From assembly GCF_000718785.1 (NCBI RefSeq), contig NZ_JOCA01000001.1, positions 372,001 to 436,000 of the forward strand: a stretch of DNA of 64,000 bases. The letters are read 5' to 3'. The stretch comes from Streptomyces sp. NRRL WC-3626 (GTDB lineage: Bacteria; Actinomycetota; Actinomycetes; Streptomycetales; Streptomycetaceae). Shown piece after piece: positions 1,107 through 14,639 of this stretch (positions are counted from its first letter, which is position 1; each line of letters begins with the position of its first letter). The notes under the pieces were generated by a model. It did no database searches, was not told the DNA's origin, and saw nothing but the letters and a program-made list of their open reading frames with translations. The translations under genes and the position numbers were made by a program.

Positions 1107-4100
1107 CTACGCCTCCGGGTCCAGCCGCTGGTGGATCAGGCGGGCGAAGTGGGCCGGGGTGCGGCCGGTGGCCAGGTCGGCCGGGCCGAGGCGGATGTCG
1201 AAGAGGTCCCGGGCCTGGACCAGGAACTGCATGCCCAGCAGCGAGTCCAGGCCGTGGTCGGTGACGTTGAGCGTGGGGTCGAGGCCGGCCGGGTCGGTCT
1301 GCAGGACGGCCGCGAGGAGCCGGGTGATGACGTCGGTGATCCTGCGGACCGCCTCGTCCGCCGGGAGGTCCGCGAGGGTGGCGAGGAGTGCGTTGCGGGC
1401 GTCCGGGGAGGGCGTGGCGGAGGCCGGGGCCAGGAGGGCGAACCGGGGGGTGGCCAGGGCCGGCAGCAGGGGGCGGGCGGTTCCCCAGCGGTAGCGGCCC
1501 GCTCCGGCGACATCGGTGCCGGCCGCGAGGAGACGGTCCGTGGTGGTCAGGACCTCGGCGGGGGTGAGCGGTTCGAGGCCGCGGGCCGCCATGGCGGACT
1601 CCATGCCGCCGCGCGCCACATAGCCGGTTTCGCCGATCGGGCCCCAGGCCAGTGCCGTGCCCGTCCGGCCGGCGGCGCGCCGGGCCCGCACGAGCGCTTC
1701 CAGGTGGGCGTTGGCCGCCGCGTAGGCCGACTGGCCCGGGTTTCCGATGGCGGCGGAGACGGAGGAGCAGGTGAGGAACAGGTCCAGGTCGCGGTCGGTG
1801 GTGAGGCGGTCCAGTACGGCCGCGCCCTGGGCCTTCGGGGCCAGTACGGCGGCGAAGCGGTCGTCGGACACATCGGCCAGTGCCGCGTCGTCCATGTGCA
1901 TCGCCGCGTGCACGACGCCGCGCAGGGGGTGTCCGCCGGCGTCCACGGTGTCGAGGACCCGGCGCAGCGCGGCCTCGTCGGTGACGTCGGCGGCGTGGGC
2001 GGTGGCGTGCACTCCCCGCTCGGTGAGGGCCTGGAGGAGGGCGGGTGCGCCGGGGGCCCCGGGTCCGCTCCGGGAGAGCAGGGCCAGGTGGCGGGCGCCC
2101 CGGTCGGCGAGCAGGTGGGCGGTGGCGGCGCCGAGACCGCTCAGTCCGCCGGTGATCAGGTAGGTGCCGTCGCCGTCGAGGCGGAGGGTGCGGGGCGCGG
2201 GTTCGACGGGGACGGGTTCGTCGAGGGGGTCGAAGGTGACGACGACCTTGCCGGTGTGCCGGGAGTGCTGCAGGAGGTGGAAGGCCTCGTCGACGCGGGC
2301 GGCGGGGTAGGTCGTGTGGGGCAGGGGGCGGTAGGTGCCGGCCACGGCCTCCGCCTCGAAGGCGGCGAGGAGGCGGGCGGACGCTTTGGGGGCGTCGATG
2401 ACGGCGTCGAGGTTGAAGCCGATGAAGGTGAGACTGCGGTGGAAGGGGCGCAGTGTGACGGGGTTGTTGAGGAAGATGTCCTTCTTGCCGAGCTCGATGA
2501 AGCGGCCGCCCGGCGCCAGCAGGTCGAGGCCCTGGGCGATGGCCTCGCCGCTGAGGGAGTTCACCACGACGTCCACGCCCCGGCCGCCGGTCAGCTCCCG
2601 CACCCGGGGCACGAAGTCCAGGCTGCGGGAGTCGAGGACGTGCTCGACGCCGAGGGTGCGCAGCAGGTCCCGTTTGGTCTCCGTGCCGGCGGTGGCGATG
2701 ACGCGGGCGCCCTGGCGGCGGGCGCACTGCAGGACGGCGAGGCCCACCGCCCCCGCTCCGCCGTGTACGAGCACGGTCTCCCCGTCGTCGAGGCCGGCCT
2801 GGTGGACCAGGGTCTGGTGGACGGTGAGGAAGGCGACGGGGAAGGTCGCCGCCTCCGCGAAGCTCATCCCCTCGGGGATGCGGAGGAGGGCGGTGGCGGG
2901 GGTCGTCGCGTGGGAGGCGAGGGCGGCGGGTACGAGGCCGCAGACCCGGTCGCCCGGCTTCAGGTTCCGTACCCCCTCCCCCACGGCGCGTACGACGCCG
3001 GCCCCGTCGGTGCCGAGGCCGCGGCCGATGGGGCTGTTCTCCACGGCCTCGGGCGGCAGCAGGCCGTTGGCCCGCATGGGGTCGCGGTAGTTGAGGGCCA
3101 CGGCCCGCATCTCGAGGGCCACTTCACCCGGTCCCGGCCCGGCGGGTTCGGTCTCCCGCCAGATCAGGCGCCGGCGCAGGCCGGGGTCGCGGGCCTCCAG
3201 GATGTACGGCGTGTCTGCGGGGGTGGCGGGCGGTTCGCCGGTGTGCCGTGTACCGGCCGGGGCGGCGGGGGAATCGTCGCCGTACGGCCTGCCGACGGGG
3301 ATCGCCGGTGGCTCGTCCGCCGGGTGCTGTAGCTGCCGGGGGACGAAGCGGCCCCCGGCGGTGAGGACGATCTCGTCCTCCTGGTCGGCCGGGGCGAGGA
3401 GTTCCGCGGCGAGACGGCGCGCGTCGGTGGCCGGGTCCCCGGTGCGGTGGCAGGACAGGCGGCGCAGGGCCAGGTCGGGGCGCTCGTTGGCGAGGGTGCG
3501 GCAGGCCGCCCAGACGGCGGCGTCGGCCGGGTGGGACGGCGCCTCCGGCGCGGGGAAGAGGCCGGTCGGGCGGGTGACGAGCCACATCCTGGGGACGGTA
3601 CGGCCGTCGAGGTCGTCGCAGGCGGCGGCGAGGGAACGCAGGGTGGCCGCGCGGCGGGTGGTCCGCTCGACGGTGTCGTACGGGGCGGGTTCGGCGAGCA
3701 GCAGGACGATGTGCGGTTCGGAGCCCGTGGGCGGGGCGGTGCGCCGGCCGGGCGTGGTGACGACGGTGGCCTCGCCGAGGTGGGCGGCCAGGGCCCGCGC
3801 GGCCGCCGTCTCGGTGTCGTCCTCCGCGACGATCACCCAGGAGGCGGCCGACCGGGGCAGCCCGGGCGCCGGTCCGGGCTCCTGGTCCGCCGCCGCGTGG
3901 AGTACGGAGCGGTCCTCGGGGCCGGTCAGCGCCACACCGGTGAAACCGCATCGCTCCAGCAGCGGTGCCCACCGGTCGCGGGGGAGGATGCGGGACGCCG
4001 GGCGCAGGGTGTGGTCGGCGCGCTCCCAGAAGTCGTGGGACGTGCCGGACAACAGGGCCTGGAGCGGCGCGTGATGGGGTTCGGTGGCCAGCAGGTGTCC

Positions 4101-7100
4101 GCCGGGGGCCAGTACGGTGCGCAGTCGGCGCAGGGTGGCGGCGAGGTCGGTGGTGGCGTGCAGGGCGTCGCCCGCGAGGACGAGGTCGAAGCCGCCCGGA
4201 GGCAGGCCCTGGCCGATCAGGTCGGCGTCCGGGTCGAGGACGCGGCGGTCGACGAAATCGTGGGCTGCGAAACGGTGTTCGGCGCGGGTGAGGACACCGG
4301 CCGTGGCCGCCGTGCAGGTGTAGCGGGTGCGGTCGGCCGGGAGCAGGGGCAGGACGGCGGCGGTCAGGGCGGTGGTGGTCGCGCCGAACTCGAGGACGCG
4401 CAGCGGGCGGTCGGCGGGCCAGCGGGCGACGATGTCGCCGAGGAGTGCCTGTACGGCGCGGTGGGTGAAGCGGTGGGCGGGGTCCGTCTCATGGAGCTGT
4501 TCGTGGGCGCCGTCCCCGGCCGGCAAAAGTGCGTGGCCCCGCAGCACGTCGGGCAGGTGGCGCAGTTGCCGGTTGAGGAGCAGGGTGCGGGCGCCGTAGG
4601 CGGGATGGTCCTCGACCAGATTGCGCAGGAGCGCCCCGGAGCGGGTCTCCGCGTCGGTCAGCCTCCAGTTCTCGTCCTCCTGTCGGACGAGGCCGTGTTC
4701 GGCGAGCAGGGGCAGCAGCAGCCGTACGAGCCGCCGGTGCCGGGGCTGCGTTCCGCCGGTCACCAGATCGGCCATGGTGAAGGGGGCGGTGGGGTCGGTG
4801 AGGAGGCCGCGCAGGGTCTCGGCCCAGCGGTGGGCGCCCGCCTGTGCGGCGGTGGCGGTGAACCGGCGGTGGCCGGTGTCGTCGAGGGCGGTGCGGGCGG
4901 CGGCGATGCGTGGCCCGGCCGCGCGGGCCACCTCGGTGGGCGCGGGGAGCGGGGAGGGCGCGGCGGGGCTCCCAGGGTGGGGTGCGGCGCGCAGGACGGT
5001 GCGCTGGACGGTCAGCGGGGTGCGTTCGGTCAGGTGGCCGCGGCGGGTGCGGCAGCCGTCGATCTCGACGGTGACGGTTCCGTCGGGGTCGGCGTAGGTG
5101 ATGTCCCAGCAGATCTCGTTGGCGCCACGGCTGCGGCGGCGCAGGTGGACGACGCCGGTGGGCGCGGGGGTGCGCCAGACGCGTACGGCGCCGAACACGG
5201 TCGGCAGGAACGCGGCGGACTCCGCCCGCTCACCGGCGAGGGCCACGGTCGCCTGCAGCGGCGCGTCGATCAGGACCGGGTGGGCGGTGTAGTCGTCGGC
5301 GGGGTGGGTCAGCCGGTAGCCGACCAGCACCTCGCCGTCGCCGGCGTCGATGCGGTCGATGAGCTGGAAGTCCGGGCCGCAGTTCAGGCCGATGCCGTGA
5401 CAGGTGCGGTAGAAGCCGGGGCCGTCGATGCGGCGGTCGCAGCGTGCCCGGACCGCGTCGACGTCGAGCGGGGCGGGGGCCGTGCCGAGGAGGGTGCGGA
5501 CCTGGGCGCGTACGACGGGCAGGCACGCGCCGCCGTGTTCCTCGCGGACGCTGATGGTCAGGGCGCCGTCGTCGGGGGTGACCGCCGTCTGCAGGGCGAG
5601 CGGCGTCGGGTCCGGCCACGGCACGGACAGCGGCCGGCCGATCTCCAGATGCCGTACCTCGACCGGGCGGTCCAGGGCCCGCCGGCCGGCGCTGAGCGCC
5701 ATCTCCACGTAGGCGGCGGCCGGCATGAGGACGTCGTCCCCGATCCTGTGGTCGCCCAGCCAGGGCACCAGCTGGGGTTCGACGGTGCCGTGCCAGACGT
5801 GGTGCGGGGCGGGCATCCGCTCGCCCACCAGGGGGTGGTCGAGGAGGCCGCTGCCGCTGGTGTGGGCGACCAGGTCCTGTGCGGTGCCGTGCCAGTACCG
5901 TTCGCGCTGCCAGGCGTAGGCGGGCAGGTCGGCCACCCGGCCGGGGCGGGGGAAGTGGTGGCGCCAGTCCGTGGCGGTGTCGGCGGCGAGCACGGCGGCG
6001 ACGGCCGACGCGGTCTCGCGGGGGCCGTTCCCGTCGCGGCGCAGGGTGGGGACGCAGGTGGCGCCGGTGTGGCGGAGATAGGGGCGCAGGACCGGGTGCG
6101 GGCCGATCTCGACCAGGACACCGGCGTGTCCGGCGGCGAGCTGGGCGGCCTCGGCGAACCGGACGGGCTCGCGGACGTTGCGCCACCAGTGGCCGGCGTC
6201 GAGTTCGGGCCCGGCGAGCGGGGTGCCGGTGACGGTGGAGAGGAACGGGACGCGGGCCGGGGCGGGTTCGAGTCCGGCGAGGGCGTCCAGGAGGGGTTCC
6301 CTGATGGGGTCCATGGCCCGGCTGTGGAAGGCGTAGTCGAGGTCCAGTTCGCGGAAGAAGACGCCGCGGGCGGTGAGTCCGGCTCCCCAGGCCGCGAGCG
6401 CGTCGGCGTCGCCGGCGATGGTCACATCGCGGTCGCTGTTGATGCCCGCGAGCTCCAACGCGCCGTCGTGGGCCCGCAGTTCCTCGCGCGCCTGGGCTTC
6501 GGGGAGGCCTACGGCGGCCATGCGGCCCCGGCCCGCCGTGGCGCCCTGGGTGCGGCTGCGCGCGGCGATCACCAGGGCCGCCTGTTCGAGGGTGAGGACC
6601 CCGGCGGTGTGGGCGGCGGCGACCTCGCCGACGCTGTGCCCGGTCACCGCCCGTGGGCGGATGCCGTGGGAGGCGAGCAGTGCGGTGAGGCCCACCTGTA
6701 CGGCGAACAGGGCGGGTTGGGCGATCTCGGTGCGCGGCCACTTCCCCGGGGACGGGTGGGCCAGTTCCTTGGCGACCGACCAGCCGAGGTGGGGTGCCAG
6801 GGCCGCGTCGGCCTCCTCGACGGCCCGGCGGAAGGCCGGTTCGCGCTCCAGCAGGTCGGCGGCCATGCCCGGCCACTGGGAGGCGTTGCCGGAGTACACG
6901 AACGCGGTACCGTCCCGCTCGGCCGTGCGTACCGTGGCCCCGTGGGCGGGCCGGCCGGCCGCCAGCAGGTCCAGCTGCCGGGCGGCGTCCCGCGGGTCGG
7001 CGGCGAGTACGGCGGCCCGGTGCGGGTGTGCGGTGCGCCGTACGGTGCTGGTGCGGGCCACGTCGTAGAACTCGCCCGGCCCGGTGTGCCGCAGCCGCTC

Positions 7101-8498
7101 CGCCATGCGGGCGGTCAGCTGCTCGAGGGCCTTGGGTGAGCGGGCGGAGACGACGACGGGCAGCGGGCGTCCGTCCGGCTCCGGGTGCGGGTCCGTCCGC
7201 CGGGGAGCGGGCGGCGGGGTGACGACGGCGTGGGCGTTGGCACCGCCGAAGCCGAAGGCGCTCACCCCGACGGCGGCCCGCTCCCCCACCTCCAGCGGTA
7301 CGGGGTCGACGGCGGGGGCCAGGCCCAGGCCGTCGAAGTCGATGCGCGGGTTGAGGGGAAGGGCGTGCAGGGTCGCCGGGACCAGCCCGTGGCGCAGCAC
7401 GAGGATCGCCTTGAGCAGACCCGCCATGCCGGAGGCGGGCTCCAGATGGCCGACGTTCGACTTCACCGAGCCGATCGGCAGCGGTCCGCCACGGCGGCGC
7501 CGGCCGAGCGCCCGGCCGATGGCCTCGGCCTCCGCCGGGTCGCCGACCTGGGTGCCGGTGCCGTGGGCCTCGACGTAGACCAGGTCGTCGGCGCCGATCC
7601 CGGCCTCCGCGTAGACGGTGTGCAGCAGCGCCTCCTGGGTCTCGGCGCTGGGCACGATCATGCCGGTGCTGCGGCCGTCGGTGTTGTTGCCGGTGGCGGC
7701 CAGGACGGCGTGCACCCGGTCGCCGTCCGCCAGCGCGTCCGCGAGGCGCTTGAGGACGAGTACGGCGCCGCCCTCCGCGCGGACGAACCCGTCGGCGTCG
7801 GCGGAGAACGCCGCGCAGCGTCCGCGCCGCGACAGCATGCCCGCATAGGAGAACCCGGCGAACGAGTAGGGATTGCTCAGCACGTTGACCCCGCCGGCGA
7901 GGGCGACCCGGCTGGAGCCCTCGCGCAGGGTGCGGCAGGCGCGGTCCAGGGCGACCAGGGCGGAGGAGCAGGCCGTGTCGACGGCCATGCTCGGCCCGCG
8001 CAGATCGAAGGCGTACGACATGCGGTTCGCCGTGATGGACAGGGTGGCGCCGGGCATGGTGTGCGGGCTGGTGTGGTCCTGCATCATCGACAGGTTCACG
8101 CCGTAGCCGGGGTCGGAGACGCCGACGTACACACAGGTGTCGGAGCCGGCCAGTGATCCGGCGGGGAGGGCGGCGTCGTCCAGTGCGTCGGCGGTCATCT
8201 CCAGCAGCAGGCGCTGCTGCGGGTCGATGTGCCGGGCCTCCGCGGGCGACATGCCGAAGTACGCGGCGTCGAACGAGGCGACGTCGTCGAGGAAGCCGCC
8301 GGCGGCGGTGTAGCTGCGGCCGGGCCGTACGGTCCCCGGGTCGACCGTACGGTCGCGGGGCAGCCGGTCGGCGGGCATCTCGCCGACCATGTCCCGCCCG
8401 TCGCGCAGCACCGACCACAGGCCGTCCAGGTCGGTGATCCCTCCGGGCAGTCGGCACCCCACGCCCACTACCGCCACGGCCCGTTCATGCTGCTGCAT
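1107..8498 (-). CDS. Highly reducing iterative-type type I polyketide synthase, KS-AT-DH-MT-ER-KR-ACP
   Basis: Single-module PKS of 2463 residues. Rough positions: KS 8-425 (active Cys near 176 in DTACSSA; His in VEAHGTGT and NVGHLEPA); AT 535-830 (GHSVGEV near 619); DH 890-1180 (His in GDHRIGDDVLMP, Asp in LIDAPLQ); methyltransferase-like 1270-1570; ER 1790-2090 (VHGGAGAVG near 1914); KR 2115-2290 (GGLSGLG, and the S/Y/N set in SSVSAAIGNPGQSAYAAAN); ACP with Ser near 2417 in HGLDSLL. No thioesterase or reductase terminus is present. The AT carries YAFHS, a hybrid of malonyl (HAFH) and methylmalonyl (YASH) signatures; I lean to malonyl-CoA. The SAM-binding motif reads LEFGATTTAL instead of a Gly-rich loop, so the MT may be dead. 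ATG 8498 follows a GGGGA site; a TTG six bases upstream is less likely. Divergent from the ole-like operon. Confidence 0.93.
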   Translation of the reverse strand: MQQHERAVAVVGVGCRLPGGITDLDGLWSVLRDGRDMVGEMPADRLPRDRTVDPGTVRPGRSYTAAGGFLDDVASFDAAYFGMSPAEARHIDPQQRLLLEMTADALDDAALPAGSLAGSDTCVYVGVSDPGYGVNLSMMQDHTSPHTMPGATLSITANRMSYAFDLRGPSMAVDTACSSALVALDRACRTLREGSSRVALAGGVNVLSNPYSFAGFSYAGMLSRRGRCAAFSADADGFVRAEGGAVLVLKRLADALADGDRVHAVLAATGNNTDGRSTGMIVPSAETQEALLHTVYAEAGIGADDLVYVEAHGTGTQVGDPAEAEAIGRALGRRRRGGPLPIGSVKSNVGHLEPASGMAGLLKAILVLRHGLVPATLHALPLNPRIDFDGLGLAPAVDPVPLEVGERAAVGVSAFGFGGANAHAVVTPPPAPRRTDPHPEPDGRPLPVVVSARSPKALEQLTARMAERLRHTGPGEFYDVARTSTVRRTAHPHRAAVLAADPRDAARQLDLLAAGRPAHGATVRTAERDGTAFVYSGNASQWPGMAADLLEREPAFRRAVEEADAALAPHLGWSVAKELAHPSPGKWPRTEIAQPALFAVQVGLTALLASHGIRPRAVTGHSVGEVAAAHTAGVLTLEQAALVIAARSRTQGATAGRGRMAAVGLPEAQAREELRAHDGALELAGINSDRDVTIAGDADALAAWGAGLTARGVFFRELDLDYAFHSRAMDPIREPLLDALAGLEPAPARVPFLSTVTGTPLAGPELDAGHWWRNVREPVRFAEAAQLAAGHAGVLVEIGPHPVLRPYLRHTGATCVPTLRRDGNGPRETASAVAAVLAADTATDWRHHFPRPGRVADLPAYAWQRERYWHGTAQDLVAHTSGSGLLDHPLVGERMPAPHHVWHGTVEPQLVPWLGDHRIGDDVLMPAAAYVEMALSAGRRALDRPVEVRHLEIGRPLSVPWPDPTPLALQTAVTPDDGALTISVREEHGGACLPVVRAQVRTLLGTAPAPLDVDAVRARCDRRIDGPGFYRTCHGIGLNCGPDFQLIDRIDAGDGEVLVGYRLTHPADDYTAHPVLIDAPLQATVALAGERAESAAFLPTVFGAVRVWRTPAPTGVVHLRRRSRGANEICWDITYADPDGTVTVEIDGCRTRRGHLTERTPLTVQRTVLRAAPHPGSPAAPSPLPAPTEVARAAGPRIAAARTALDDTGHRRFTATAAQAGAHRWAETLRGLLTDPTAPFTMADLVTGGTQPRHRRLVRLLLPLLAEHGLVRQEDENWRLTDAETRSGALLRNLVEDHPAYGARTLLLNRQLRHLPDVLRGHALLPAGDGAHEQLHETDPAHRFTHRAVQALLGDIVARWPADRPLRVLEFGATTTALTAAVLPLLPADRTRYTCTAATAGVLTRAEHRFAAHDFVDRRVLDPDADLIGQGLPPGGFDLVLAGDALHATTDLAATLRRLRTVLAPGGHLLATEPHHAPLQALLSGTSHDFWERADHTLRPASRILPRDRWAPLLERCGFTGVALTGPEDRSVLHAAADQEPGPAPGLPRSAASWVIVAEDDTETAAARALAAHLGEATVVTTPGRRTAPPTGSEPHIVLLLAEPAPYDTVERTTRRAATLRSLAAACDDLDGRTVPRMWLVTRPTGLFPAPEAPSHPADAAVWAACRTLANERPDLALRRLSCHRTGDPATDARRLAAELLAPADQEDEIVLTAGGRFVPRQLQHPADEPPAIPVGRPYGDDSPAAPAGTRHTGEPPATPADTPYILEARDPGLRRRLIWRETEPAGPGPGEVALEMRAVALNYRDPMRANGLLPPEAVENSPIGRGLGTDGAGVVRAVGEGVRNLKPGDRVCGLVPAALASHATTPATALLRIPEGMSFAEAATFPVAFLTVHQTLVHQAGLDDGETVLVHGGAGAVGLAVLQCARRQGARVIATAGTETKRDLLRTLGVEHVLDSRSLDFVPRVRELTGGRGVDVVVNSLSGEAIAQGLDLLAPGGRFIELGKKDIFLNNPVTLRPFHRSLTFIGFNLDAVIDAPKASARLLAAFEAEAVAGTYRPLPHTTYPAARVDEAFHLLQHSRHTGKVVVTFDPLDEPVPVEPAPRTLRLDGDGTYLITGGLSGLGAATAHLLADRGARHLALLSRSGPGAPGAPALLQALTERGVHATAHAADVTDEAALRRVLDTVDAGGHPLRGVVHAAMHMDDAALADVSDDRFAAVLAPKAQGAAVLDRLTTDRDLDLFLTCSSVSAAIGNPGQSAYAAANAHLEALVRARRAAGRTGTALAWGPIGETGYVARGGMESAMAARGLEPLTPAEVLTTTDRLLAAGTDVAGAGRYRWGTARPLLPALATPRFALLAPASATPSPDARNALLATLADLPADEAVRRITDVITRLLAAVLQTDPAGLDPTLNVTDHGLDSLLGMQFLVQARDLFDIRLGPADLATGRTPAHFARLIHQRLDPEA

Positions 8499-8647
8499 CG
8501 CCAAGTCCCCGCCCCTTCACACCAGTTACCGGTCCTCTTGCGGATTGAAAGGGACAACTGGGCGGAAAATCCAGCTCAAATCACTCGTTGGGGTGGAGAA
8601 CACCATGTAATCGTCATTCCGGTCGGGCGGCTGGCTACGGTGACGCA
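8499..8647. promoter_or_regulatory. Divergent promoter region between PKS and oleA-like operon
   Basis: 149-base non-coding gap between the PKS start and the oleA-like start. It is markedly AT-richer than its flanks (for example 8545-8620), as expected for a shared promoter zone. I could not assign convincing -35/-10 pairs and see no clear inverted repeat. Co-expression of the two sides from this region is inferred from layout only. Confidence 0.55.
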
Positions 8648-9676
8648 GTGCCCGAAGCCCTCCGTGCCCGTATCGCCGCCGTCTCCGCCCACCTTCCCTC
8701 CCGTTACCGGACGTTGGACGAAATCCGCGTCAAGATCACCGAGACGGGTGGCCATGCGCCGCCGCCAGGACTGCTGGAGGATCTCACCGGAGTGCGCGGG
8801 GTCCATGTCCACGAGGACGGGGAGAACGCGTCCGATCTCGCGGTGACGGCCGCCCGCAGCGCGCTCGGCGACGCCGGACTGAAGATCGGCGAGGTGGATC
8901 TGCTGGTGTTCGCGTCGACCTCACAGGATCTGGTCGAACCCGCCACGGCCCATCTCGTGGCCACCAAACTGGGCGCCTCCTGCCCGGTGTTCGACATCAA
9001 GAACGCCTGCAACAGCTTCCTCAACGCCATGGAGGCGGCCGCGTCGTTCATCGAGACCGGCCGCTACCGCACGGTCCTCATCGCCTGCGGCGAACCCTCC
9101 ACCCTGGCCACCCGCTGGCACGCCCCGGACCGGGAGGACCTGCTGCGGGCCCTGCCCGGCTACACCGCCTCCGACGCCGGCGCGGCGATGGTGCTGACCG
9201 CCGGCCCGGCGGGCGACGGCGACCCCGGCATCCTGTCGCTGCGGTTCGTCAGCAACTCCGCGGCCTGGGAGGCCTGCACCGTGTCCGGCGGCGGAAGCAT
9301 GCACCACCTGTCCGTCCACGACGACCACACCACCCTGCGCCTCAACGGGGACCTGCGGCAGGCCGGTCTCGACGTGCTGCCCCGGATCCTGGAGACCGCC
9401 GGAAAGGAACTGGAGGCGGCGCGGGCCGGGGCCTTCTCCTTCATCGCCTTCCACCAGATCGCGATGCCGCAGTACCGCGAGGTGATCGAGACCTTCTCCC
9501 TCCCCGAGGACCGCTGCATGCCCGCCGTGGCCGAGCACGGCAACTGCGCGGCGGCCTCGCTGCCGCTGCAACTGGTCAAGGCGCGGGAGGCCGACCGGGT
9601 CGAGAGCGGGGACCTGGTGGCGATGATCGGCCTGGCCAGCGGTTTCAGCTTCGGTCTGGCGGTCGTCCGGTGGTGA
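8648..9676 (+). CDS. oleA: OleA-like head-to-head acyl condensing enzyme (thiolase/KAS III family)
   Basis: 342-residue thiolase-fold enzyme. OleA enzymes join two acyl thioesters by a decarboxylation-independent Claisen condensation to give a 2-alkyl-3-keto acid. Visible catalytic residues, numbered from GTG 8648: Cys121 in NACNSFLNAM, His269 in AFHQI, Asn299 in EHGNC, and Glu98 in DLVEPATAH. The Glu in an LEP-S/A-TA context, plus a GE motif near 148-149, is diagnostic of OleA rather than FabH. GTG 8648 follows GGTGA and removes a non-homologous leader that a TTG start would add. It is the first gene of an operon whose next three genes match OleB, OleC and OleD in that order. Lipstatin LstA/LstB are related enzymes. 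Whether it uses acyl-CoA or the PKS-bound chain cannot be told from sequence. Confidence 0.88.
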   Translation: MPEALRARIAAVSAHLPSRYRTLDEIRVKITETGGHAPPPGLLEDLTGVRGVHVHEDGENASDLAVTAARSALGDAGLKIGEVDLLVFASTSQDLVEPATAHLVATKLGASCPVFDIKNACNSFLNAMEAAASFIETGRYRTVLIACGEPSTLATRWHAPDREDLLRALPGYTASDAGAAMVLTAGPAGDGDPGILSLRFVSNSAAWEACTVSGGGSMHHLSVHDDHTTLRLNGDLRQAGLDVLPRILETAGKELEAARAGAFSFIAFHQIAMPQYREVIETFSLPEDRCMPAVAEHGNCAAASLPLQLVKAREADRVESGDLVAMIGLASGFSFGLAVVRW

Positions 9677-10608
9677 CCGCACGAGCGGGGGGCGCCCCGG
9701 TTCCCGCCGCGCCGCACCAACTGCTGCCGGGCTACCCCGCACCCCGGCACTGGCGCCGGGTGCCGGTCACCGGGCAGCACTACGTCGATCTCGGCTCCGG
9801 GCGGCCGGTGCTGTTCCTGCACGGCAACCCGTCGTGGAGCTATGCCTGGCGGGGACTGCTGCGCCAACTCGCCCCGCACGCCCGCTGCGTGGCCCCCGAC
9901 CTGCCCGGGTTCGGAATGTCCCGGCAACTGCGGCCGGCGGACGGGGTGCCCGACCCGTACGAGGCACAACTGGAGGGCCTGGACAGCCTGTACCGCCACC
10001 TGGTGCGGGACGGGGGGCTGCCCGAGCGGGGCTGGACGTTCGTGCTGCACGACTGGGGCGGCCCGCTCGGTACCGCCTGGGCGCTGCGCAATCCGGGGGT
10101 CGTGGCCGCGATGGTCGTCTGCAACACGGTGGCGTTCCCGTTCCCGGACGGTTTCCGGCTTCCGTTCTTCCTGCGCTGGATCCGCGACCACCGGCCGGTC
10201 GCCGAACTCGTCCACGTCACCAACGCGTTCGCCCGTATCGCCGTACGGAAAGGGGTGCACCGCCCGCTCCTTGCGGCCGAGCGGCGGGCCTTCCTGCGGC
10301 CGTACGCCCGCCGTGCGGAACGCCGGGCGGTCACCGACGCCGTACGGGCGATCCCCCGCGGGCCCGCGGACCCCTCGTGGCGGCTGCTCGAACCCGCCGG
10401 GGCCGGGAGCGGCCTGGCGGACCTGCCCCTGCTCGTCGGCTGGGGCATGCGCGATCCCGTCTTCACTCCGGCCCTGGCGGCGGAGTGGGAGCGCCGGTAT
10501 CCGCACGCCGCCGTCCACCGCTTCCCCGACGCCGGGCACTTCGTGATGGAGGACGCCACGGCCGAACTGGGCGACCTCATCCGCGACTTCCTCCAGGGGA
10601 CCCCATGA
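9673..10608 (+). CDS. oleB: OleB-like alpha/beta hydrolase (beta-lactone decarboxylase / haloalkane dehalogenase family)
   Basis: 311 residues, alpha/beta-hydrolase fold of the haloalkane dehalogenase branch. It has the oxyanion-hole motif LFLHGNPSWSYAWR, the nucleophile elbow VLHDWGGPLG with Asp127 as nucleophile, a likely acid Asp261 in GMRDPVF, and His289 in DAGHFV (numbering from GTG 9673). In the olefin pathway OleB removes CO2 from the beta-lactone made by OleC to yield a cis-alkene. An intact triad therefore favours an alkene end product over a stable lactone. Its start overlaps the oleA stop (GTGA); an adjacent GTG at 9670 is also possible. The stop overlaps the oleC ATG (ATGA). The enzyme class alone could be a dehalogenase; the call rests on gene order. 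Confidence 0.83.
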   Translation: MTARAGGAPVPAAPHQLLPGYPAPRHWRRVPVTGQHYVDLGSGRPVLFLHGNPSWSYAWRGLLRQLAPHARCVAPDLPGFGMSRQLRPADGVPDPYEAQLEGLDSLYRHLVRDGGLPERGWTFVLHDWGGPLGTAWALRNPGVVAAMVVCNTVAFPFPDGFRLPFFLRWIRDHRPVAELVHVTNAFARIAVRKGVHRPLLAAERRAFLRPYARRAERRAVTDAVRAIPRGPADPSWRLLEPAGAGSGLADLPLLVGWGMRDPVFTPALAAEWERRYPHAAVHRFPDAGHFVMEDATAELGDLIRDFLQGTP

Positions 10609-12182
10609 GCACGAGCCTTCCGGGCCTCGCCGCACGCCTGGCCGGGCGGCCCGGCGCCGTCGCCCTCGTCGAAAGCCGCAAGGGGCTCTCCCGGGCGACC
10701 CGGCGCGGGGAGCTGCTGGGGCACTGCCATCACATCGCGCGGGCCCTGCACGACGCCGGGGTCCGGCCCGGTCACAAGGCCGTCGTGATGACCCGCGACG
10801 CCCACGACCTCACCGCCGTCTGCTACGCGCTGGGTCTCCTCGGCGCCGTACCCGTGCTGATCGAACCGCGCGCCGAGGTGGGCCGCTGCCTCCAGGACGT
10901 CGCCCCGGACGTGTTCATCGGGGAGCCGCCGGCCCAGTGGGGACGCCGGGCGCTGGGATGGGGGCGCCCGCATGTGCGGATCACCCTGGTCACCGGGGAC
11001 TCGCCCCTCCCGGCGGGGCGGCGGCTGACCACACGGACGCCCGCCGACGGCATCCCGCTCCCCCGCTCCGGCGGGCCCGACGGTGACGGGCCGGCGCTCA
11101 TCGCCTTCACGTCCGGCTCCACGGGACGGCCCAAGGGCGCCGAGTACCGCCACTCCACCCTGGCCGGTCAGCTCGACGCGCTGACGACGCTGATGGACCC
11201 GGGGCCCGACGACGTACTCCTCGCCGGGTTCCTGCCGGTGGCGCTGCTCGGTCCGCTGCTGGGCCTGACCACCCTCGCCCCGGCGGTGAACCACCTCGCC
11301 CCGGCCCGCACCCCGCCGGAGGAACTCGTCGGACCGCTGCTGGAGCACCGGGCGAGCATCGTCCTGGCCTCCCCGGCCGTCCTCACCCTGATCGCCCGGC
11401 ACTGCGCCCGGCACGGCATCACCCTGCCCTCGGTCCGGCAGATCCTGTCCTTCGGCGCCCCGCTGCGCACCGCGCTCGCCGCCGCCCTGCGCGGGGCCGT
11501 ACCGCAGGACGCCGAACTCCTCAGCGTGTACGGCGCCACCGAGTGCCTGCCCGTCTCCGCGATCGGCGACCACGAACTGCGGGCCTCGCGCGCCGCGCCG
11601 CCCGCCGGACACGCGGGCACCTGCCTGGGCCGGCCGCTGCCCGGTGTCCGCGCCCGCGTCCTGGACGCCGACGCCACCGGCCTCGGGGAGATCGCCGTCA
11701 GCGGAGCCACCGTCAGCCCCGCCTACCACGCGCGCCCGGACGCCGACGCCGTCACCAAGAGCGACACCGACGACGGTGTGCTGCACCGCACCGGCGACCT
11801 GGGCCGGCTGGACGACGAGGGCCGGCTGTGGTTCCTCGGCCGCCGGGCCCACCTGGTCACGGGCACCGGGTTCGGCCTCACCACCGAGGACATCGAGGCC
11901 ACGGCGGACACCGCGCGCGGGGTCCGCCGTACCGCCCTGGTCGGGGTCGGTCCGGCCCTGTGCCAACTGCCCGTGCTGTGCGTGGAACCCCTCCCGGGTA
12001 CGTCCCGCGCCGCCGTCCTGGCAGCCGTGCGGGCCGTGCTGAAGGACCATCCGGAGGGACATCGTGTCGGCGCCCTGCTGATCCGCCGCGGCTTCCCCAC
12101 CGACCCCCGGCACAACTCCAAGATCGACCGGCTGCGACTGGCCGGCTGGGCCGCCGGAAGGCTCCGCGGGAGGGGACGATGA
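10605..12182 (+). CDS. oleC: OleC-like beta-lactone synthetase (ANL superfamily adenylating enzyme)
   Basis: 525-residue ANL-family enzyme. Motifs: P-loop FTSGSTGRPKG at 168-178; SVYGATECLPVS, where the YGATE-LPV form is characteristic of OleC; HRTGDLGRLDDEGRLWFLGR (hinge region); and a C-terminal PRHNSKIDRLRL holding the probable catalytic Lys506, matching the RHN-K-I motif of OleC. Characterised OleC proteins turn a 2-alkyl-3-hydroxy acid into a cis-beta-lactone with ATP. LstC (lipstatin) and NltC (nocardiolactone) are relatives. The ATG overlaps the oleB stop and the stop overlaps the oleD start (both ATGA), so these genes are translationally coupled. A generic acyl-CoA ligase is the main alternative, but the motif variants argue against it. 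Confidence 0.87.
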   Translation: MSTSLPGLAARLAGRPGAVALVESRKGLSRATRRGELLGHCHHIARALHDAGVRPGHKAVVMTRDAHDLTAVCYALGLLGAVPVLIEPRAEVGRCLQDVAPDVFIGEPPAQWGRRALGWGRPHVRITLVTGDSPLPAGRRLTTRTPADGIPLPRSGGPDGDGPALIAFTSGSTGRPKGAEYRHSTLAGQLDALTTLMDPGPDDVLLAGFLPVALLGPLLGLTTLAPAVNHLAPARTPPEELVGPLLEHRASIVLASPAVLTLIARHCARHGITLPSVRQILSFGAPLRTALAAALRGAVPQDAELLSVYGATECLPVSAIGDHELRASRAAPPAGHAGTCLGRPLPGVRARVLDADATGLGEIAVSGATVSPAYHARPDADAVTKSDTDDGVLHRTGDLGRLDDEGRLWFLGRRAHLVTGTGFGLTTEDIEATADTARGVRRTALVGVGPALCQLPVLCVEPLPGTSRAAVLAAVRAVLKDHPEGHRVGALLIRRGFPTDPRHNSKIDRLRLAGWAAGRLRGRGR

Positions 12183-13213
12183 GGGTCCTGGTCACCGGCG
12201 GGAGCGGATTCCTCGGCCGGGAGATCTGCCGGCAGCTGACCGCGCGCGGCGACGTCGTCTCCTCCCTGGGCCGTCGCCCGAGCGCGGCGCTGGAACACCT
12301 GGGCGTCCACCAGCACCTGGGCGATCTCGCCGACGAGGCCGCTGTCGCCCGCGCGGTCGCCGGGTGCGACGCGGTGGTGCACAACGCCGCGCTCGCCGGT
12401 GTCAGCGGCCCGCCGAGGCCCTACTGGGCCACCAACGTCGTCGGCACCCGCCATGTGATCGGGCAGTGCCGCGCCCACCGGGTGCGCACCCTCCTGCACA
12501 CCTCGACCGCCAGCGTCGCCTTCCGGCCCGGCGGCCTGGAGGGCGTCGACGAGAGCCTGCCCGTCACGCCCTGCCACCTGCCCGCCTACCCCGCCACCAA
12601 GGCCCGCGCCGAGGCCCTGGTGCTGGCCGCCCACGGCCCGGAGCTGGCCACCGTGTCGCTGCGCCCGCACATCATCTGGGGGCCGGGCGACCCCCACTTC
12701 GCCCCCGCCCTCGTACGCGCCGTGCGGGCCGGGCTGCTGCCGATGCCCGGCGACGGCGGCAACCTCGTCGACACCACCCACGTCCGCACCGCCGCCCACG
12801 CCCATCTGCTCGCCCTGGACAGTCTGCGGCGGTCACCGCGGACGGCGGGCGGCCGCGCCTACTTCATCGCCCAGGACGACCCGCGTCCGCTGCGCGAGCT
12901 CACCCGGCACTTCCTGCGGGCCGCCGGCGTCGACGCCCGCTGGTGCGCCGTACCGCCCCGGCTCGCCACCGCCGGGGCCGCCGCCGCCGAGGCGCTGCTG
13001 CGCGCGGCCCGCAGCACCCGCACCCACGCCCTGAGCCGCTTCCTGGTCGCGGAACTGCTCCACCCGCACCACTTCGACCTCACCGCCGCACGCCGCGACC
13101 TCGGCTTCGAGCCGCCGGTCGGATTCGACGCCGGCATCGCGGAGCTCACCCGATCGAACGACAGCGAGGACCCACCGTGCCGGACAGCTACGACACCCTC
13201 CGCTCCATCCTGA
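12179..13213 (+). CDS. oleD: OleD-like NAD(P)-dependent 3-keto acid reductase (extended SDR, 3-beta-HSD family)
   Basis: 344 residues. It has an N-terminal nucleotide-binding GGSGFLG, the active-site Ser in TSTASVAF, and Tyr137-x3-Lys141 in AYPATKARAE, i.e. an intact extended-SDR triad of the NSDHL/3-beta-HSD type. OleD reduces the 2-alkyl-3-keto acid from OleA to the 2-alkyl-3-hydroxy acid used by OleC; LstD does the same in lipstatin. The ATG overlaps the oleC TGA by four bases. The last 37 bases overlap the next gene (ACP) in another frame, which is unusual and suggests tight coupling. The C-terminal tail after about residue 330 (EDPPCRTATTPSAPS) is low-complexity and lies in the overlap. 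Confidence 0.87.
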   Translation: MRVLVTGGSGFLGREICRQLTARGDVVSSLGRRPSAALEHLGVHQHLGDLADEAAVARAVAGCDAVVHNAALAGVSGPPRPYWATNVVGTRHVIGQCRAHRVRTLLHTSTASVAFRPGGLEGVDESLPVTPCHLPAYPATKARAEALVLAAHGPELATVSLRPHIIWGPGDPHFAPALVRAVRAGLLPMPGDGGNLVDTTHVRTAAHAHLLALDSLRRSPRTAGGRAYFIAQDDPRPLRELTRHFLRAAGVDARWCAVPPRLATAGAAAAEALLRAARSTRTHALSRFLVAELLHPHHFDLTAARRDLGFEPPVGFDAGIAELTRSNDSEDPPCRTATTPSAPS

Positions 13214-13416
13214 CCGGCTCCTTCCGCGTCCCCGAGGACGAGATCCGGCCCGAGCTCACCCTGGAACAACTCGACCTGGACTCCCTGGCCCTGACGGAAC
13301 TGGTGCTCGTCCTGCACGAACGCCTCGGGGTCAGGATCGACGGCGAGTCCGTCTCCCGCACCGCGACCGTCGGCCAGGTCGCCGGCCACCTCGACGCACT
13401 GCGCGCGAGCGCGTGA
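13177..13416 (+). CDS. Stand-alone acyl carrier protein
   Basis: 79-residue discrete ACP with the phosphopantetheine site Ser36 in LDLDSLALTEL and a typical four-helix pattern (residues 4-12, 36-48, 55-60, 67-77). It starts at GTG 13177, 37 bases inside the oleD gene, preceded by GCGAGGA. Its stop overlaps the start of the next ketosynthase (GTGA). Classical olefin operons act on acyl-CoA and carry no ACP, so a dedicated carrier suggests that at least one acyl partner here is carrier-bound. It could carry a chain between the FabF-like KS and OleA or the PKS. It may also be a branch primer; the partner is not determined. Confidence 0.9.
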   Translation: MPDSYDTLRSILTGSFRVPEDEIRPELTLEQLDLDSLALTELVLVLHERLGVRIDGESVSRTATVGQVAGHLDALRASA

Positions 13417-14639
13417 CCGGGCCCGTCGCCGTCACCGGAGTCGGCCTGCTCACCCCCGGCGGGGAGGACGCCGACGCCACCTGGGAGACGGTCCGCCTCG
13501 GCGCCCGCACCGCGGCCGCCCACGATCCGGCGCTGGCCGGCCTGCCCGTCGACTTCTCCTGCCATGTGCCGCTGTCCCGCGACGAACTGGACCGGCGCGT
13601 CGGACGTGCCGCCTGGCGCATGTCACGCAACGCCGTGCTGGCCGTGCTGGCCGCCCGCGAGGCGGTACGGGACGCCGGGCTCGACCCCCGCACCTGGGAC
13701 GGGGACCGCGTCGCCGTCGTCATCGGCTGCGGGCTGGGCGCGGACGAGGTGCGCGAGGAACAGGGCGGACGGCTGGAGGAGCGGGGCGCCGGCCTGGTCT
13801 CCGCGCTCACCGTCCCCCAGATGATCCCGAACATGGCGGCCGGTGAGGTCTCCATCGACCTCGGGGCCCGGGGCCCCGGCCTCGCCTGCGCGACCGCGTG
13901 CGCCTCCGGCGCCACCGCCGTGGCCGTCGCCCGTGATCTGCTCGCCGCCGGACGGTGCGACATCGCCGTGGCCGGGGCCACCGAAGCCGCCGTCACCCGG
14001 CTGACGACCGCGGGCTTCTGGCGCGCGGGCGTCCTGTCCCGGCGCGTCGACGCGCCCGCCGCCGCGTCCCGGCCGTTCGCTCCCGACCGGGACGGCTTCG
14101 TCATGGCGGAGGGCGCCGGGATGCTCGTACTGGAGCGGCGGGCGGACGCGTTCGCCCGCGGTGCGCGTGCCCGTGCGCTGCTGGTGGGCTGCGGCAGCAC
14201 CTCGGACGCGTACCACCCCACCGCGCCCGCCCCGGACGGCCGGGGCGCGGAGGCGGCCCTGCGGTCCGCGCTGGCGGACGCGGGCCTGTCGCCTCACGAC
14301 GTCGACCACGTCAACGCCCACGGCACCTCCACCCGGGCCAACGACGCCGGGGAGGCGGCCCTGATCGCCCGGGTGCTTCCGCACCGGCCCAGCGTGACCG
14401 CGCCCAAGGGCGTGCTCGGCCACGGGCTCGGCGCGGCGGGCGCCGTCGAGGCGGCGCTGACCGTGCTCACCCTGCAGCACGGCACGGTGCCGCCGGTCGC
14501 GAACCTGGACGCCGAGGCGCCCGGGTCCGGCATCGACTGCGTCACCGAGGAGCCGCGCCGGCAGGACGTCCGGGTCGCCGTGAGCCACTCCTTCGGCTTC
14601 GGCGGGCACAATGTCGTCCTCGCCCTGGCGAGGGCCTGA
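13413..14639 (+). CDS. FabF-type beta-ketoacyl-ACP synthase (KAS II)
   Basis: 408-residue condensing enzyme with a complete Cys-His-His triad: Cys163 in TACASGATA, His303 in NAHGTSTRAND and His337 in LGHGLGAAGA, plus the family Lys332. The C-terminal HSFGFGGHN motif is present. It belongs to the KAS II/type II PKS KS-alpha family; no chain-length-factor partner or AT gene is adjacent. It is coupled to the ACP gene (GTGA), so the pair probably makes or extends an acyl-ACP. It is the last gene of the ole-like operon and converges with the permease gene nine bases beyond. It may supply a beta-keto or extended starter for OleA or the PKS (inference). Confidence 0.9.
   Translation: MTGPVAVTGVGLLTPGGEDADATWETVRLGARTAAAHDPALAGLPVDFSCHVPLSRDELDRRVGRAAWRMSRNAVLAVLAAREAVRDAGLDPRTWDGDRVAVVIGCGLGADEVREEQGGRLEERGAGLVSALTVPQMIPNMAAGEVSIDLGARGPGLACATACASGATAVAVARDLLAAGRCDIAVAGATEAAVTRLTTAGFWRAGVLSRRVDAPAAASRPFAPDRDGFVMAEGAGMLVLERRADAFARGARARALLVGCGSTSDAYHPTAPAPDGRGAEAALRSALADAGLSPHDVDHVNAHGTSTRANDAGEAALIARVLPHRPSVTAPKGVLGHGLGAAGAVEAALTVLTLQHGTVPPVANLDAEAPGSGIDCVTEEPRRQDVRVAVSHSFGFGGHNVVLALARA

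What the first reader, a model, noticed from the sequence alone, without database searches (positions are those of the whole stretch)
1107..14639. Highly reducing PKS joined to a complete oleABCD set with a private ACP and FabF-type KS
The sequence shows four consecutive, start-stop-overlapping genes with OleA, OleB, OleC and OleD motifs in canonical order, followed by an ACP and a KAS II, all divergent from a thioesterase-less KS-AT-DH-MT-ER-KR-ACP synthase. Known head-to-head systems (bacterial olefin operons, lipstatin, nocardiolactone) use fatty acyl-CoA. Here I infer that the PKS chain, or a chain made by the ACP/KS pair, is released by OleA through condensation with a second acyl chain, then reduced (OleD), closed to a beta-lactone (OleC) and decarboxylated (OleB). 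The product would be a long alkene with a polyketide arm, or a beta-lactone if OleB is slow. I know of no characterised pathway with this exact combination.
Basis: partly seen in the sequence, partly recalled or inferred. Interest (0 to 1): 0.93.

Follow-up and report, generated by a model that had tools for sequence, protein, structure and literature searches.

The report
Polyketide synthase wired to olefin-making enzymes
A small, recurring Streptomyces gene cluster pairs a chain-building polyketide synthase with relatives of the enzymes bacteria use to join two fatty chains head to head, so it probably makes an unusual hydrocarbon or lactone, though no product has been shown.

Summary
In detail: window 1107-14639 holds a thioesterase-less PKS divergent from OleA-, OleB-, OleC-, OleD-like genes, an ACP and a FabF-type KS. 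It is a real unit. Of 392 genomes of the window's genus, 18 (its own included) gave an OleA relative at 58-100% identity, all 18 with the PKS beside it. The twelve loci seen with all seven genes form one OleA clade. OleB, C and D fall with canonical actinobacterial OleB, C and D (B weakly); OleA belongs to another, NACN-motif clade. Catalytic residues checked are kept, except the PKS methyltransferase motif, degenerate in the window. The ACP/KS pair is optional, and recurs with ole genes in PKS-free clusters. Best reading, by inference: OleA releases the PKS chain by joining it to a second acyl chain, perhaps built on the private ACP; OleD, C and B make an internal alkene. A PKS-type synthase feeding OleABCD has a precedent (Pfa/Ole, PMC6463001), so this is a new variant, not a new kind.

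The parts
1107..8498 (-). Iterative-type reducing PKS (iteration inferred), KS-AT-DH-MT-ER-KR-ACP, no thioesterase; ATG start at 8498 (the longer TTG frame reaches 8504)
   Evidence: KS, AT, DH, ER, KR and ACP motif residues 25 of 25 full-length PKS; best PDB match mycocerosic acid synthase
8499..8647 (.). Divergent intergenic region; weak conserved stretch around CACTCGTTGGGGTG, no long shared operator seen
   Evidence: alignment of 34 loci, 18 of them printed
8648..9676 (+). OleA-like ketosynthase (NACN clade) with the Glu117/Cys143/His285/Asn315 set
9673..10608 (+). OleB-like alpha/beta hydrolase (beta-lactone decarboxylase lineage), Asp/His/Asp kept
10605..12182 (+). OleC-like beta-lactone synthetase (AMP-binding)
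12179..13213 (+). OleD-like 2-alkyl-3-oxoalkanoate reductase
13177..13416 (+). Discrete acyl carrier protein with attachment Ser (DSL)
13413..14639 (+). FabF-type ketosynthase with Cys-His-His

Best explanation
A compact biosynthetic unit for head-to-head joining of two acyl chains. Shown by sequence: gene content, intact catalytic residues (methyltransferase excepted), PKS/OleA inseparability, kinship of B, C and D with canonical OleBCD. Inferred: (1) the PKS builds a reduced chain on its terminal ACP and cannot release it alone; (2) the discrete ACP and KS, borrowing FAS enzymes as RedQ/RedR do, build a second chain; (3) OleA takes one chain onto its Cys and condenses it non-decarboxylatively with the other, both probably ACP-bound, giving a 2-alkyl-3-keto acid; (4) OleD reduces, OleC closes a beta-lactone, OleB decarboxylates it to an internal alkene. 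In clusters without ACP/KS the second chain would come from the FAS pool or from another PKS chain.
Confidence: 0.55

Rival explanations
1. The ACP/KS pair makes the starter of the PKS, not the second chain; OleA then joins the finished PKS chain to a cellular fatty acyl-CoA, or two PKS chains to each other.
For: The KS of a PKS + putative acyl ligase + ACP + KS locus without ole genes in the 20 kb fetched (L177) is the nearest relative of the seven-gene KS group (99*). PKS+ABCD loci without ACP/KS exist.
Against: ACP+KS accompany ole genes with no PKS in the fetched stretches L180, L181 and a related set in L179, where they cannot be priming a neighbouring one.
Confidence: 0.25
2. [quoted passage not shown]
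For: OleA groups (90, SH-aLRT) with the OleA of GT2/P450 clusters in which I saw no OleB-like gene near OleA and which resemble the proposed beta-lactone cluster of Actinoplanes.
Against: OleB Asp/His/Asp and the HGNP and HDWG motifs kept in 22 of 22; OleB groups with canonical OleB, though the split from the hydrolase outgroups is weak (66).
Confidence: 0.2
3. OleA releases the PKS chain as a ketone or an alpha-pyrone (PpyS-like); OleBCD act on something else or are partly dispensable.
For: PKS+OleA with no clear OleC or OleD in G006 or S. netropsis; Glu is shared by OleA and PpyS.
Against: OleB is directly downstream of OleA in 13 of 18 genus genomes, and B, C, D are beside a PKS or on the same contig in 4 of the other 5.
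Confidence: 0.15
4. Two unrelated neighbours: an ordinary oleABCD for fatty acyl-CoA beside an independent PKS.
For: No expression data; weak intergenic conservation.
Against: 18 of 18 linkage, changing genomic neighbourhoods, two gene arrangements around such a PKS.
Confidence: 0.07

Closest known systems
Pfa synthase plus OleABCD (Shewanella, Photobacterium; hentriacontanonaene)
   Same: PKS-type synthase feeds OleA, inferred to be from its ACP domains; loci sometimes adjacent (PMC6463001, abstract and passages)
   Different: Pfa is a multi-protein PUFA synthase whose chain is joined to itself; no discrete ACP/KS pair is mentioned in the passages read. Here one polypeptide with a single ACP, an OleA of another clade and an ACP/KS pair
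Canonical OleABCD of Actinobacteria (Micrococcales, often with oleBC fusion)
   Same: OleB, C, D lineages; same gene order A-B-C-D
   Different: OleA clade differs (NACN, not the NACL of the published search pattern); PKS present; B and C not fused here
OleACD-type beta-lactone clusters (lipstatin, nocardiolactone; Actinoplanes GT/P450 type)
   Same: OleA, C, D functions; the OleA clade is nearer to the GT/P450 type
   Different: OleB present and intact here; a single OleA; PKS instead of GT/P450; OleC and OleD of the GT/P450 type lie apart
MxnB/CorB and PpyS alpha-pyrone ketosynthases
   Same: Stand-alone KASIII-like enzyme joining two chains (PMC4578411, passages)
   Different: MxnB/CorB lack the Glu; no OleBCD (recalled)
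RedP/RedQ/RedR (undecylprodiginine)
   Same: A private ACP and KS build a dedicated acyl-ACP (PMC12654105, passages)
   Different: No FabH-type initiator in this cluster apart from the OleA-like protein, whose residues are OleA-type
Mycocerosic acid synthase (MAS)
   Same: Best PDB match of the PKS (885.7 bits over residues 7-1169); iterative and released by a partner, PapA5 (both recalled, from no call)
   Different: The PKS here has an MT domain (motif degenerate) and no Pap partner seen in the cluster

Membership tests
OleABCD head-to-head olefin pathway | OleA Glu117/Cys143/His285/Asn315 | tested here: met
   34 of 34 PKS-linked rows; alignment to PDB OleA
OleABCD head-to-head olefin pathway | OleA inside the canonical olefin OleA clade | tested here: not met
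   Six canonical OleA form their own group (100*); the PKS-linked OleA groups with GT/P450-type OleA (90, SH-aLRT only); NACN instead of NACL
OleABCD head-to-head olefin pathway | OleB, OleC and OleD in the lineages of canonical operons, apart from dehalogenases, CoA ligases and other SDRs | tested here: met
   SH-aLRT only: C 99*; D 81; B joins the two unfused canonical OleBs at 81, but its split from the two hydrolase outgroups is only 66, so B is the weakest
OleABCD head-to-head olefin pathway | Catalytic residues of OleB, C and D | tested here: met
   OleB and OleC residues, OleD Tyr/Lys and STASV 22 of 22; OleD glycine motif in 19, 3 rows cut at the N-terminus by my gene calling. Which residues count is recalled
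OleABCD head-to-head olefin pathway | NCBIfam equivalog cut-offs for OleC and OleD | tested here: not met
   but 0 of 246 phylum genomes reach the OleD cut-off, canonical operons included
OleABCD head-to-head olefin pathway | Olefin product | not testable with these tools
   no chemistry available
Pfa-Ole coupled system | PKS-type synthase genetically linked to oleA | tested here: met
   18 of 18 genomes with OleA >=58%
Pfa-Ole coupled system | PfaA-type synthase (tandem ACPs, separate subunits; recalled) | tested here: not met
   One PP-binding stretch, single polypeptide; PfaA model 248 bits against cut-off 1010
OleACD beta-lactone clusters | No oleB | tested here: not met
   OleB-like gene at 9673-10608 with its residues kept
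PpyS pyrone synthases | Placement in the PpyS branch | not tested
   No PpyS sequence was brought into the tree
RedP/Q/R-type acyl supply | Private ACP + FabF-type KS with intact residues | tested here: met
   12 of 12 ACP Ser and KS Cys-His-His
RedP/Q/R-type acyl supply | Phylogenetic kinship with RedQ/RedR | not tested
   No named RedQ/RedR sequence in the KS tree

The most novel reading that the evidence does not exclude
Streptomyces own a modular olefin line in which an OleA of a distinct clade joins two chains delivered on two dedicated carriers, the ACP of a single-chain iterative PKS and a private ACP loaded by its own ketosynthase, giving a hybrid polyketide/fatty-acid alkene. The donors are swappable: PKS only, ACP/KS only, or both.
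Probability: 0.4. Interest if true: 0.78.

Novelty: new variant of a known kind. Interest (0 to 1): 0.62.

Why it matters
It would make a second case of PKS chain release by an OleA-type ketosynthase, in a single-polypeptide PKS, with a route to unsymmetrical alkenes. The natural variants (PKS only, ACP/KS only, both) let the source of each half be tested by comparison. It also shows oleABCD-like sets in Streptomyces, whereas a survey of ole clusters found them among Gram-positive orders only in Micrococcales (PMC7158056, passages).

Tried and rejected
'PKS + OleA alone is the ancestral core': first suggested by 5 of 18 loci without OleB downstream. Dropped after finding B, C, D on the other side of the PKS in G240, beside a PKS end on another contig in G218, about 42 kb away next to a PKS remnant in G257, and a second B-A-C-D operon about 22 kb away in G212. 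G006 and S. netropsis remain without clear OleC or OleD; OleB was searched in G006 (best 34%) but not in S. netropsis.

'MT adds methyl branches': doubtful. The GxGxG motif is intact in 4 of 25 PKS, not in the window.

Shared operator between PKS and oleA: no strong one seen. No Rfam match at gathering thresholds in the window. The neighbouring gene at 714-1085 (no Pfam family), amino acid permease and dxs are not part of the unit.

Literature: searches of the open-access library returned 0, 10, 9, 14, 6, 0 and 0 papers; judged by titles and abstract openings, none describes this combination. Passages or sections were read of PMC4578411, PMC6463001, PMC7064751 (sections 10, 11), PMC7158056 and PMC12654105 only. 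Subscription journals are not covered.

Limits: six of eleven fetched loci served as canonical references (L136-L138, L141-L143); L145 and L146 were outgroups for D; L139, L140 and L144 were left out. Support there is SH-aLRT only. The one search set dropped duplicates (102 to 74) and would drop rows with internal stops. The 25 PKS leave out L009 (run of N inside), L031 (fragments), L091 (contig-cut), L093 (two frames), loci cut by short contigs, and L114, fetched later. L021's contig ends about 320 bases after OleD, so it is not counted as lacking ACP/KS, although the tree labels it ABCD; that tree also labels as 'A-only' loci later found to have B, C, D elsewhere. One search scored five candidates per genome. 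Names of organisms come; G genomes bear none, so 'Streptomyces' for them and for the window is inferred.

Full report
WHAT IS THERE. The window is part of a 7.9 Mb genome whose nearest named OleA relatives are Streptomyces. From 1107 to 14639 lie seven genes. On the minus strand is a 2,463-residue PKS with KS, AT, DH, MT, ER, KR and ACP and no thioesterase family. Divergent from it, with each gene overlapping the next, are OleA-, OleB-, OleC-, OleD-like genes, a 79-residue ACP and a 408-residue FabF-type KS. None of the seven contains a TTA codon; GC3 is 0.90-0.94.

IS IT A UNIT. A search of 392 genus genomes with OleA found 18 with 58-100% identity, the window's own genome included; all 18 have the PKS immediately divergent. 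The eight next-tier loci fetched (L077-L084, 45-47% by tblastn) have no such PKS within their flanks; three show partial 35-37% matches that overlie a KS gene. Among 52 named loci, 22 are of this type (L007-L027, L031), all 22 with the PKS beside OleA; L031 (S. tuirus) appears in fragments. In the OleA tree the PKS-linked rows are separated from the outgroup at 99/100, and the 12 loci seen with all seven genes are one clade (100/100); in one of them, L009, the PKS is interrupted by a run of N. The window's flanking genes are shared by 4 of the 11 other seven-gene loci and not found in the flanks of 7, which delimits the cluster.

VARIANTS. (i) Seven genes: 12 loci, the window included; contigs of L007, L010, L011 and L013 end too soon to tell. 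(ii) PKS + ABCD without ACP/KS in the flanks fetched: L019, L020, L022, L023, L094-L097 and L114, 9 loci. (iii) OleB not downstream of OleA: 5 of 18 genus genomes. In G240 B, C, D lie across the PKS; in G218 on contig C19 beside a PKS end, the PKS being apparently split by the assembly (inference); in G257 about 42 kb off, beside a PKS remnant; in G212 there is a separate B-A-C-D operon about 22 kb off; in G006 no OleC match at E<=1e-25 and OleB and OleD at 36% or less. S. netropsis likewise has OleC matches of 73 bits at most and OleD of 37% at most. (iv) PKS-free sets of OleA-ACP-KS divergent from B-C-D (L180, L181), and a related set in L179. The seven-gene KS are nearest to the KS of a PKS/ligase/ACP/KS locus (L177, 99*), then, with weaker support (90), to a group holding the KS of the PKS-free ole clusters and of L178, which has no ole genes.

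MECHANISM. Shown: architecture, residues, linkage. Inferred: the PKS chain stays on its ACP; OleA accepts it and condenses it with a second chain, perhaps from the private ACP; OleD, OleC and OleB follow in the known order (as given in PMC6463001). In that paper OleA and the PKS-type Pfa synthase together gave a 31:8 ketone in an E. coli fadD mutant, and the authors infer an ACP-bound substrate. RedQ/RedR show how a private ACP and KS can build a dedicated acyl chain (PMC12654105, passages). The least certain step is the role of the ACP/KS pair: second chain or PKS primer. An intact OleB favours an alkene over a beta-lactone; clusters lacking oleB are the ones linked to beta-lactones (PMC7064751, section 11).

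NOVELTY. The enzymology is a recombination of known kinds with a close functional precedent, so: new variant of a known kind. What is new here, as far as the searches show, is the single-polypeptide PKS with the NACN-clade OleA, the swappable donors, and oleABCD-like sets in Streptomyces. Absence from print rests on searches of an open-access library, judged by listings.

Noticed in passing
L180:3975-10313, L181:4439-10808: PKS-free clusters: OleA-ACP-KS divergent from OleB-OleC-OleD, perhaps a type II form of the same logic.
   Followed up: partly
L101-L105, L189, L192, L194, L196-L202: Many genus loci carry OleA with GT2-type glycosyltransferase-like, OleC-like, P450-like and often OleD-like genes, resembling the Actinoplanes beta-lactone-type cluster (family scan only for L101).
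   Followed up: partly
L106, L107, L186-L188, L191, L193, L203: A recurrent set with two OleA/FabH-like genes flanking an ACP-sized gene (ACP match weak or missing in some) and a FabF-type KS, without OleB, C or D seen nearby.
   Followed up: no
L177:2-10689: PKS (49% identical, cut by the contig end), a gene that looks like an acyl-activating ligase (recalled, no family scan), ACP and KS (74%) in G212: another context of the same ACP/KS pair.
   Followed up: no
L031:1432-13492: PKS/ole cluster of S. tuirus appears only as fragments; decay or sequencing errors not told apart.
   Followed up: no
L117:7020-10113 (own genome, C1 about 580 kb): KASIII-like gene, AMP-binding-like gene and an ACP-like gene side by side: a separate likely biosynthetic locus.
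   Followed up: no
L042-L044, L046-L049, L051-L055, L057: OleA-like proteins, mostly of gut Clostridia by record title, that keep Glu, Cys and Asn but show Ser or Thr at the position aligned with His285.
   Followed up: no
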